Below, one piece after another: positions 41,191 to 44,019 of a stretch of DNA of 64,000 bases; position 1 is the stretch's first letter, and every line of letters begins with the position of its first letter. The DNA is from Porifericola rhodea. GTDB taxonomy: Bacteria; Bacteroidota; Bacteroidia; Cytophagales; Cyclobacteriaceae. The translations under genes were made by a program, and so were the position numbers. A model generated the notes under the pieces. That model had not been told where the DNA came from, ran no database searches, and was given only the letters and a program-made list of their open reading frames with translations. The stretch spans positions 3,984,501-4,048,500 of the forward strand of contig NZ_CP119421.1 of the NCBI RefSeq assembly GCF_030506305.1, read 5' to 3'.

Positions 41191-43923
41191 CTAACTATCC
41201 CTTTGTGGTACTTCTACTTTTGTCAGTTTACTAGCCATCAGACATAGTTTTTTTAGCTGAATGGCTAGGTTTTGAGTATCGCTCAGAGCATCTGTTTTAA
41301 ACTTGTCCCTTACTAATTTATGTTTAGGCTTGTACTGTTTTAGATAGTCCAGATAAGGCACAAAAATGTATGCTTTCAGGTATTGATATTGCCAGCTCTC
41401 TACCGGAATATTGCTCAAGGTAAGTTGTTGCGCTTTTTCTTTCAGGATGATCACACTCCTCTCTTCATCATAGTCGTACTGAAGAGTTCTGCTCAACGGT
41501 TTTTCAAACTTCTCAGTTTTAGATTGTATCTGAGCTAAGGGGTTTTGAGAGTCAGTAGAGATATTCTGTACGTCAAAAAAAGCTTTACCCAGCGCGACCC
41601 ATTTTCTGAAGCCTGGGAGTAGAGGAATACGTGGCCACTCGCGCTGCAAAAACACACCATATTTTTTTTGATAGGCTGAATCCTGCAATTGAGCAAAACT
41701 GTAGTAAAAAATATTTTCTTTACTGACGGCTTCTGCATCTTTTAGGGCTTCATCAAACTTGAAAGTGATAGCAGAAAGTTGCTCATTTAGCTCCTGAGCA
41801 TATGCGCGTACCCTTTGGTAAATCCCTTTGCGTTCTACAGCACCTCGCTCCAAATGTTGTACTTTGCTACTAAGCTCTGCTATTTTTTCACGTGCCGGAT
41901 TGAGTAAACTTATATCTGTACTATAATGCTGGGCATTCTGAAGCAACTGATGTATCTGATCCGGGTATTTGCGAATTAGCGGTAGGTCACGGCTAACTGA
42001 AGCTATGCTTTCCAGCGTTTGAGTAATAGCAAGAGGAGGAAAGGCTTCTGCTTTGGTCTGGGGTTGATGAATAAGCTGTTCATAATATTCAGAGAATACC
42101 TTAAGAGCTGCATCACTGATATTGTACTCTTGGTCTGCTGAATAGATTGGAAAACCAACTCTATTGTTTTGGGCAAGCCAGGGAGATACTGTAGCAAAAG
42201 ACTGAAGTGGCTGTGTCTCATAGACAATGGTAGCTACTTCAGACATAAACTTATTCATGAGTAGTTCCTCATGATAAATATATAAATACACAAAAGGCGC
42301 TACTTGTATCGCTTTAATCTTCTGGCTATCAAATTTTAATCTCATACCGCCCTTAGCCATACTGTGAAGGCTTTCTGGCCATTTTATTTCATCTGGAAGA
42401 TCTCCGTTGGCATTTAAAGCCTTGCTATATTGCTTAATCAGGTATCTTACTTTTTTCTCCAGTATTTTTGCCGATGGAGCTACGAGCCAGGAGCCTAAAT
42501 GTGGGTTTGTGCCCTCGCTACTGTTTATGAATATAGCATCCTCAGAACCGTATAGCGGAAGGTGTTCAAAAAAATCTGTATCAGGTAAGCTGATCCAGTA
42601 GTTTTGACTGATAAAATCAATCTCTTTCCATTTTAAGTCATCAGCATCTTCTATTCCTTTTTGTAAAAGCTTTTGCAAAGGAATGGTACAATGTCTTATC
42701 TCGTAGTTTCTTTTAACAGAAGCAGATTTTTTTACAAGGTAAAGCACGCAAAGTCCTTTTTGATCATCAGGAAGCTCCAGTATGTATACCTCCTGAAAGT
42801 GTTGGTAGACATAAGTTCTAAAATACAGGTCTTTATCAGATTCCAACACCTCATCTGGAAGTACACAAAGCAGAATAGCTGATTCTTTTAGTTTTTCAAT
42901 CGCCCAAAACACAAGTCTGTCTCTTTCCTGAATACTTGTCTGTTCAATTCCTGATTTTTGAACGTCCTCTAAAATTTTATTGTCTAATGCATCTGCACCT
43001 CGTTGTGCATAACGATAGGGGTGAGGCTGTTTTCTAAGGTCTAGAGCGATTAGGGGGTAGCTAGTATTCTGAATCTGACGAGCTTCACTCGCAGAATTTT
43101 GAGGAGCAAAAAGACTGGTTTGTTGGCCATGATACTGCTCTCTAACTAAATCCTCCCAATCAATTAGATGCTCACCCTGAGGTGCTAGCAAGTTTAGTCC
43201 TATCCACATCAGGTCTATCTGCACCTGGTTAAGCTTGTTGGTGGGAGAAGAGTCTAATAGAGCAGATTCACTAAGTTGTGCAAAAGCAGTTGTCCAGTTG
43301 CTTTCTTCAAAATTGATAAGTAGTAACTTTGCCTCTTCATCGTGTATACTTAGCCCTATGCGTCTTTTAGACAAATACTGTAGATAATCTAACAGCGACC
43401 TGGATGCTAGTTCTGAAAATGATGGTTGATATGCTCGGTATTCACTAACAAAATGCAGGTACTGCCATACTTTTAGTTGGGCATCTGCTTTCAGCTGGCT
43501 TTCTATTAGGTGCTTAATTCCGGATAATTCTTCCAACTTGCTTTTTACAGCTTTATCCTTAACAAAAGCATCAGTCAGTTTAGTGAAAAATGGAAAGCGC
43601 TGACTGAAGATTTTCCATTGCTTTTCTGAGAGTATGGTCTGTAGAAAGAGTACAGTAGCAGTAATCTTAAGCAGGTCGTTTTCCCGCAGGCGATCGCTAA
43701 GTCTGATTACAAGGTTTTGCTTTAGATCGTTTAGAACTATTCGTAATTTTTTGTTCTGACTGCAAACTTCCTTTAATTCTCTGTTAAGCTGCTTAAATGA
43801 TTTTTGATAAGCCTCCTGCCATATGCTAAGGTGCTGCTCTACAAAGCTGAGAGCTGGCTGGTCTGCATCACAAACCAAAGGCAGGTAGTTGAGAAAGGTT
43901 TGGCTCTTTTGATCTAAAAGCAT
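41191..43923 (-). CDS. Large protein related to Type ISP restriction-modification enzymes, methylase motifs lost
   Basis: A 910-residue soluble protein. Residues about 535-910 follow the pattern after the methylase core of Type ISP (LlaBIII-like) enzymes. The IKAIQVAPFVYLYIYHEEL block corresponds to the IRxVxYRPFD segment, VGFPIYSADQEYNISDAAL (588-606) to the FPLYLYP/LSPE block, and 738-785 (IFYYSFAQLQDSAYQKKYGV, then FLQREWPRIPLLPGFRK) and 840-863 to the specificity domain. Residues 325-400 (ERDRLVFWAIEKLKESAILL, YILELPDDQKG) fit the methylase region. However, there is no glycine-rich SAM motif I, and the expected N-P-P-Y is degenerate (LRKQPHPYRY, 296-305). The nuclease and helicase parts are absent. 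The N-terminal 150 residues are helical and unassigned. It is probably a DNA-binding protein or inactive remnant, but the frame is intact over 2.7 kb. Confidence 0.6.
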   Translation of the reverse strand: MLLDQKSQTFLNYLPLVCDADQPALSFVEQHLSIWQEAYQKSFKQLNRELKEVCSQNKKLRIVLNDLKQNLVIRLSDRLRENDLLKITATVLFLQTILSEKQWKIFSQRFPFFTKLTDAFVKDKAVKSKLEELSGIKHLIESQLKADAQLKVWQYLHFVSEYRAYQPSFSELASRSLLDYLQYLSKRRIGLSIHDEEAKLLLINFEESNWTTAFAQLSESALLDSSPTNKLNQVQIDLMWIGLNLLAPQGEHLIDWEDLVREQYHGQQTSLFAPQNSASEARQIQNTSYPLIALDLRKQPHPYRYAQRGADALDNKILEDVQKSGIEQTSIQERDRLVFWAIEKLKESAILLCVLPDEVLESDKDLYFRTYVYQHFQEVYILELPDDQKGLCVLYLVKKSASVKRNYEIRHCTIPLQKLLQKGIEDADDLKWKEIDFISQNYWISLPDTDFFEHLPLYGSEDAIFINSSEGTNPHLGSWLVAPSAKILEKKVRYLIKQYSKALNANGDLPDEIKWPESLHSMAKGGMRLKFDSQKIKAIQVAPFVYLYIYHEELLMNKFMSEVATIVYETQPLQSFATVSPWLAQNNRVGFPIYSADQEYNISDAALKVFSEYYEQLIHQPQTKAEAFPPLAITQTLESIASVSRDLPLIRKYPDQIHQLLQNAQHYSTDISLLNPAREKIAELSSKVQHLERGAVERKGIYQRVRAYAQELNEQLSAITFKFDEALKDAEAVSKENIFYYSFAQLQDSAYQKKYGVFLQREWPRIPLLPGFRKWVALGKAFFDVQNISTDSQNPLAQIQSKTEKFEKPLSRTLQYDYDEERSVIILKEKAQQLTLSNIPVESWQYQYLKAYIFVPYLDYLKQYKPKHKLVRDKFKTDALSDTQNLAIQLKKLCLMASKLTKVEVPQRDS

Positions 43924-43969: not shown

Positions 43970-43998
43970 AAAAAAGTCCGACCCGTTTTGGACCGAAC
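43970..43998 (-). terminator. Terminator after the YtxH-like gene
   Basis: GTCCGACCC (43976-43984) and GGACCGAAC (43990-43998) pair, allowing G-U, and on the minus strand the stem is followed by six T (complement of 43970-43975). Confidence 0.6.
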
Positions 43999-44019
43999 TC
44001 TTTGTGTTAAACGCTAAAG

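What the first reader, a model, noticed from the sequence alone, without database searches (positions are those of the whole stretch)
41191..43923. Intact 910-residue relative of Type ISP restriction enzymes that has lost the nuclease, helicase and methylase motifs
Segments after the methylase core of Type ISP enzymes (the YRPFD-like block near 538-556, FPLYLYP/LSPE-like block at 588-606, and the specificity-type C terminus from about 738) are recognisable in order, but the SAM motif I is missing and N-P-P-Y is degenerate (296-305). The frame is open for 2.7 kb with no stop or frameshift, which argues for selection on a non-catalytic role such as sequence-specific DNA binding, phage defence by sequestration, or gene control. 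The match of domains is from memory of the family; its meaning is inference.
Basis: partly seen in the sequence, partly recalled or inferred. Interest (0 to 1): 0.65.

Follow-up and report, generated by a model that had tools for sequence, protein, structure and literature searches.

The report
Dead restriction enzyme kept by selection
A bacterial gene descended from DNA-cutting and DNA-marking restriction enzymes has lost the motifs for both activities, yet relatives in 22 bacterial genomes of the same order keep it, in Flammeovirga under strong selection, with an added helical module, so it has probably been turned to a new, likely DNA-binding, job.

Summary
Confirmed and extended. The gene lies on the minus strand (window 41191-43923, 910 aa). 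It passes the Pfam cut-off for the Type ISP specificity domain (E=1.2e-28). Its N-terminal half aligns by profile with the coupler and methyltransferase of active enzymes (E=4.7e-22), but motif I (DPATGTGTF) reads LINFEESNW, NPPY reads QPHPY, and there is no nuclease. It does not look like a decaying copy. It belongs to a family found in 22 genomes from five families of the order (GTDB Cytophagales, inferred), none with either methylase motif. All share a roughly 110-aa helical insert absent from active enzymes. It occurs once in 16 of 18 Flammeovirgaceae genomes. In Flammeovirga dN/dS is 0.02-0.11, and the dead methylase domain is the slowest-evolving part. Gene order is stable within genera and unlike a defence island. 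Best reading: a domesticated Type ISP/IIL pseudoenzyme acting as a non-catalytic DNA-binding clamp with a helical docking module. Exact function is untested. The nearest active relatives have no helicase, so 'lost the helicase' is not supported.

The parts
41191..43923 (-). Catalytically dead Type ISP/IIL-like gene, 910 codons plus stop
   Evidence: Open frame; PF18135 E=1.2e-28; single copy in the genome; GC 39.8% against 39.9% for the window
43354..43746 (-). Coupler-like helical region, residues 60-190
   Evidence: Profile alignment to the coupler of active enzymes; AF2 helices here are low confidence
42664..43353 (-). Degenerate methyltransferase (Rossmann) domain, residues 191-420
   Evidence: hhalign E=4.7e-22 for residues 60-420 of the family against active enzymes; fold of residues 281-446 matches CamA Z 11.0 and M.TaqI Z 9.5
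43294..43320 (-). Former SAM-binding motif I position, about residues 202-210, LINFEESNW instead of DPATGTGTF
   Evidence: Alignments
43108..43128 (-). GxQxxLF-like element before motif IV, about residues 266-272 (GQQTSLF), retained in many dead members and in active enzymes
   Evidence: Alignments
43015..43035 (-). Former NPPY (motif IV) region, about residues 297-303, RKQPHPY
   Evidence: Alignments
42079..42663 (-). First part of the target-recognition domain, residues 421-615
   Evidence: PF18135 stretch 464-847; alignment to active enzymes
41731..42078 (-). Family-specific insert, residues 616-731; helical bundle at about 631-731; best-conserved block against G002 (56% identity at 641-731)
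   Evidence: Present in all 22 members, essentially absent in active enzymes; AF2 pLDDT mostly 72-93
41194..41730 (-). C-terminal specificity core and tail, residues 732-910 (SKENIFYY...PRIPLLPGFRKW...GK)
   Evidence: Strongest match to DrdV and LlaGI; conserved in dead and active proteins
43971..44003 (-). Terminator-like hairpin between the YtxH-like gene and this gene, suggesting the gene has its own transcription unit
   Evidence: Pattern scan, 14 pairs plus T run; suggestive only

Best explanation
The gene encodes a domesticated pseudo-restriction enzyme. An ancestral single-chain nuclease-coupler-methylase-specificity enzyme (Type IIL/ISP kind) lost its nuclease and the SAM and NPPY motifs, and gained a helical (four-helix) module inside its specificity domain. 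The result was kept as a single-copy chromosomal gene in several families of Cytophagales. It most likely still closes the methylase/specificity clamp on DNA, binding particular or modified sites without chemistry, and uses the helical bundle and the coupler remnant to oligomerise or to recruit a partner, for a host function such as gene control, chromosome organisation or DNA surveillance. Shown: descent, loss of catalytic motifs, the shared insert, purifying selection (in Flammeovirga), stable gene order. Inferred: DNA binding, the docking role of the bundle, the host function.
For: Descent: PF18135 cut-off met by the window protein and every full-length member scanned; dead N-terminal half against active enzymes E=4.7e-22. 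Catalytic loss: 22 members, none with motif I or NPPY. Selection: dN/dS 0.058 at dS 0.26, 0.065 at dS about 1, 0.063 at dS 0.9; dead methylase region dN 0-0.019. Core-gene behaviour: one copy in 16 of 18 Flammeovirgaceae; same gene order in three species of the window genus and recurrent neighbours across Flammeovirga. Shared insert not found in active enzymes, in other orders of the class sampled or in viral contigs. DNA clamp: LlaGI and LlaBIII grip DNA between methylase and specificity domain (PMC4872093), and that part is retained as a fold.
Against: No DNA binding, target or partner is demonstrated. The protein has no strong positive charge (net -4, pI 6.6), though some active relatives are similar. 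The window gene evolves faster than its neighbours (40% against 65-85% identity to G002), and in the window genus the N-terminal and first methylase parts are the least conserved, unlike Flammeovirga. One of three same-genus copies carries a frameshift. In the window's family only this genus had a full-length match, so the distribution is patchy and transfer between lineages is possible.
Confidence: 0.55

Rival explanations
1. Neofunctionalised enzyme or sensor: the former SAM/adenine pocket now binds another ligand or a modified flipped base, or does different chemistry.
For: In Flammeovirga the dead methylase region is the most constrained part of the protein (dN 0-0.019) and the motif I site carries a new fixed sequence, YPSFTLPPF, in all nine species.
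Against: The replacement motif is not shared across the family: window genus LINFEESNW, G568 and G557 partly deleted, G522 different. In the window genus residues 191-300 are among the least conserved.
Confidence: 0.17
2. Anti-phage role without catalysis: binds and sequesters unmodified or modified phage DNA, or senses it for another effector.
For: Ancestry is a restriction enzyme; a dead protein could act as a sensor (inference).
Against: Neighbourhoods look like housekeeping genes (polA, ribosomal-protein genes, ExbD-like, OmpA) and are stable within genera (several of these names were read from sequence, not scanned); one copy in nearly every Flammeovirgaceae genome, unlike patchy defence genes; specificity region conserved within Flammeovirga rather than diversifying.
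Confidence: 0.12
3. Subunit of a composite enzyme: the dead chain positions DNA for a methylase or nuclease acting in trans, as METTL14 does for METTL3 (analogy from general knowledge).
For: The window genome encodes three strong N6_Mtase (PF02384) genes elsewhere; the insert is a plausible docking module.
Against: No neighbour is shared by all; only one pair of genera shares flanking genes.
Confidence: 0.1
4. Decaying pseudogene or silent restriction gene, merely not yet broken.
For: Fast evolution of the window copy and a frameshift in one of three same-genus copies; G528 keeps half-decayed motifs EPTVGRSTF and CPPL.
Against: Long open frames in 21 of 22 genomes across deep divergence, dN/dS 0.02-0.11 in Flammeovirga, a shared gained insert, and the catalytic site already gone in all.
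Confidence: 0.05

Closest known systems
Type ISP restriction-modification enzymes LlaGI and LlaBIII (PDB 5ffj, 4xqk)
   Same: Methylase and specificity domains in the same order; PF18135 match; among the top structural matches
   Different: No Mrr nuclease, no helicase, no SAM or NPPY motifs; extra helical insert
DrdV, single-chain restriction-methylase (PDB 7lo5, 7lvv)
   Same: Best PDB match by sequence (1.3e-17) and by Foldseek (1e-12 to 1e-14); like the window gene's active relatives it has no helicase (for DrdV from general knowledge)
   Different: DrdV is catalytically active with a nuclease; the window protein has neither nuclease nor methylase motifs
CamA adenine methylase of Clostridioides difficile (PDB 7lni and others)
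   Same: Methylase fold match (Z 11.0, rmsd 4.4, 155 residues); a methylase without a nuclease (general knowledge)
   Different: CamA methylates and has intact motifs; the window protein lacks them
BsaXI Type IIB enzyme with helical knob and paddle (PMC11997821)
   Same: Precedent for helical modules in a restriction-methylase chain that take part in DNA binding and cleavage
   Different: BsaXI is active; no sequence link to the insert was found here
Inactive restriction genes such as disrupted MmeI-family genes (discussed in PMC5867850)
   Same: Restriction-modification genes without activity
   Different: Those are disruptions described as readily reactivated; this family lost its motifs throughout and stays under purifying selection where tested

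Membership tests
Type ISP restriction-modification enzyme | Type ISP C-terminal specificity domain (PF18135) | tested here: met
   E=1.2e-28, 100.6 bits against cut-off 25.9
Type ISP restriction-modification enzyme | Coupler domain (PF22240) | tested here: inconclusive
   No Pfam hit for the window protein; weak sub-threshold hits in members G481 and G522 (E=0.0036, 0.0028); profile alignment spans the coupler
Type ISP restriction-modification enzyme | N6-adenine methylase motifs I and NPPY | tested here: not met
   LINFEESNW and QPHPY instead; none of 22 family members has them
Type ISP restriction-modification enzyme | N-terminal Mrr/PD-(D/E)xK nuclease | tested here: not met
   Domain absent; only about 60 residues precede the coupler-like region; G481 keeps a degraded GYWKSC for GYWE(A/S)K
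Type ISP restriction-modification enzyme | SF2 helicase-like ATPase | tested here: not met
   No Pfam match; nearest active relatives also lack it
Type IIL/IIG single-chain enzyme (DrdV-like) | Nuclease, methylase and specificity in one chain without ATPase | tested here: not met
   Specificity domain and methylase fold present, nuclease and methylase motifs absent
Orphan DNA methylase (CamA-like) | Intact SAM and NPPY motifs without nuclease | tested here: not met
   Motifs lost
The dead Cytophagales family described here | PF18135 match, no methylase motifs, helical insert at the same place | tested here: met
   Insert profile match 1.8e-48 in the window gene, though that gene was part of the profile; alignments
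The dead Cytophagales family described here | Single origin (one clade) | tested here: inconclusive
   Tree without the insert columns needs two changes; clade not rejected, AU p=0.148
The dead Cytophagales family described here | Binds DNA | not testable with these tools
   Needs EMSA or ChIP

The most novel reading that the evidence does not exclude
A new class of bacterial chromosomal protein: a restriction-methylase-derived pseudoenzyme, a core gene in Flammeovirgaceae, whose dead methylase pocket has become a reader of particular or modified DNA bases, with an added four-helix module that relays binding to a partner.
Probability: 0.25. Interest if true: 0.85.

Novelty: new variant of a known kind. 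Interest (0 to 1): 0.62.

Why it matters
Restriction-modification genes are usually mobile, patchy and quick to decay. Here a whole lineage keeps one as a single-copy gene after its catalytic motifs are gone and after adding a module, with the dead active-site domain under the strongest constraint in Flammeovirga. That is a clear case of restriction machinery recruited for what is probably a host function. It can be tested in Flammeovirga isolates (methylome, ChIP-seq, deletion). No description of the family turned up in the papers searched.

Tried and rejected
1) Genome scan with the single protein found nothing; the family is too divergent for exact peptide patterns. 3) NCBIfam gave no family; PADLOC gave mainly restriction-enzyme models over the C terminus. 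4) Full-length AF2 was poor (pLDDT 51.4); residues 280-910 gave 62.9. Fold evidence is secondary, and its alignment contained active methylases, which can bias it. 5) The insert's best structural matches are four-helix bundles (designed bundles, Avd, S23-like; Z about 11), a level the tool calls common for helical bundles, so no family is assigned. 6) Search for a conserved neighbour: only Flammeovirgaceae genera g161 and g169 share flanking genes. 7) dN/dS was not computed for the window gene; it is only 40% identical to its nearest intact orthologue, so dS is presumed saturated, and selection there is inferred from identity and synteny. 8) Paper searches found nothing on this family. 10) Further viral-contig scans only returned loci already in hand.

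Full report
OBSERVATION. The gene is an uninterrupted 910-codon frame on the minus strand, window 41191-43923. It lies in a 5.49-Mb single-contig genome and is the only PF18135 gene there. Its composition matches its surroundings (GC 39.8%, window 39.9%). Pfam gives Type_ISP_C at E=1.2e-28 over residues 464-847. PDB sequence search gives DrdV (1.3e-17) and LlaGI (1.3e-8), mainly over the C-terminal part.

CATALYTIC STATE. Active relatives from the same order and from viral contigs carry PF18135, PF22240, PF02384 and PF07669 but no helicase. Against them, the motif I site DPATGTGTF is LINFEESNW (about residues 202-210) and the NPPY region reads RKQPHPY (about 297-303). The nuclease domain is absent. 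The degenerate half is still homologous: the profile of residues 60-420 of the dead family aligns across coupler and methylase with E=4.7e-22, and the three window-genus proteins alone give 2.7e-11.

SAME-GENUS ORTHOLOGUES. Two other species of the genus carry the gene in identical gene order (esterase, SDR, YtxH-like, this gene, CxxCxxCC protein, BNR, OmpA, response regulator, GDSL-like). G002 has a 928-aa protein, 40% identical, with its neighbours at 65-85%. In G001 the gene is split by a frameshift at a seven-A run, with both parts otherwise open. The best conserved part between the window protein and G002 is residues 641-731 at 56%.

A FAMILY. A profile search of 390 genomes of the order found relatives that were not ordinary enzymes. 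Flammeovirga (nine species, 824-829 aa), seven other Flammeovirgaceae, G481, G528 and G522 all lack both methylase motifs. With the window genus this makes 22 genomes in five families of the order. A census of the held Flammeovirgaceae found one copy in 16 of 18 genomes; the two without it are 2.8-3.0 Mb genomes. In the window's own family only its genus has a full-length match. In 395 genomes drawn from the class no other genome matched the insert profile.

INSERT. All members have an extra block of about 110 residues (window protein 616-731; 108-130 in others) between the NISDxAL and KENIFYY blocks of the specificity domain; active enzymes have 1-25 residues there (63 in one). The insert profile aligns to active enzymes only at the 23 columns of the flanking KENIFYY block. 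It is predicted as a helical bundle with pLDDT mostly 72-93. Its fold matches are of the generic four-helix kind.

SELECTION. In Flammeovirga, dN/dS of the dead gene is 0.058 (dS 0.26), 0.065 (dS 0.99) and 0.063 (dS 0.91), with other pairs 0.02-0.11 at higher dS; the neighbour polA is 0.02-0.05. By region, the dead methylase part has dN 0.000, 0.019 and 0.018 in three pairs, lower than the coupler, insert or tail. This excludes decay in that genus and suggests the dead pocket matters there. In the window genus residues 191-420 are less conserved (26-42%) than the insert (56%), so the two lineages may stress different parts.

TRANSITIONAL FORMS. G528 keeps EPTVGRSTF and CPPL and lacks nuclease and coupler. 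G481 keeps a nuclease-like N terminus with GYWKSC where active enzymes have GYWE(A/S)K. Both carry the insert. Gain of the insert may therefore have come before the full erosion of the motifs, which then proceeded separately in different lineages (inference). A tree that leaves out the insert columns does not place all dead members in one clade, but does not reject one (two changes; AU p=0.148).

CONTEXT. Neighbourhoods are stable within genera and mostly unrelated between them: a polA-like gene and a HIRAN gene in Flammeovirga, ribosomal-protein genes in g161 and ExbD-like genes in g173 (names other than HIRAN read from sequence). g161 and g169 share two flanking genes. No restriction or defence gene was recognised beside it in the loci examined, though not every neighbour was scanned. 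A terminator-like hairpin lies upstream of the window gene.

STRUCTURE. The model of residues 280-910 (pLDDT 62.9, pTM 0.39) matches DrdV (Foldseek 9e-13), LlaBIII and LlaGI, and CamA at Z 11.0 over 155 residues. Global TM-scores are low because domain placement is unreliable, and the alignment included active enzymes.

MECHANISM. Published structures show LlaGI and LlaBIII closing a clamp of methylase and specificity domain around DNA (PMC4872093). The window family keeps that part, loses the catalytic motifs, and adds a helical bundle inside the specificity domain. The best reading is a non-catalytic DNA clamp with a docking module, used for a host function. DNA binding, target and partner are all inferred.

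NOVELTY. PF18135 covers the specificity domain, but no record or paper found here describes a catalytically dead, insert-bearing, core-gene branch. I call it a new variant of a known kind; if the pocket turns out to be a modified-base reader it would be more than that.

Noticed in passing
L032:9850-10060: In the same-genus genome G001 the orthologue is interrupted by a frameshift at a run of seven A; both halves are otherwise open, so this is a recent mutation, a phase-variable tract or an assembly error.
   Followed up: partly
L071:10050-10436: In Flammeovirga a HIRAN-domain gene (PF08797, E=1.1e-9) lies convergently next to the dead gene, with a polA-like gene on the other side; similar small genes recur at this place in the Flammeovirga loci seen.
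   Followed up: partly
window 43971-44003: Strong terminator-like hairpin (14 pairs, T tail) between the YtxH-like gene and the dead gene.
   Followed up: no
L119:629-2599: G528 member with half-decayed motifs (EPTVGRSTF, CPPL) and loss of nuclease and coupler: a possible transitional form.
   Followed up: partly
G000:C1:2612570-2618626 and 3021606-3022556: The window genome has three strong N6_Mtase (PF02384) genes (frames of 493-511 aa) outside the window, two within about 6 kb of each other.
   Followed up: no
L034:4013-8183: In G056 an active-type enzyme is split into a 580-aa methylase part (with DPATGTGTF and NPPY) and a 452-aa specificity part about 1 kb apart.
   Followed up: no
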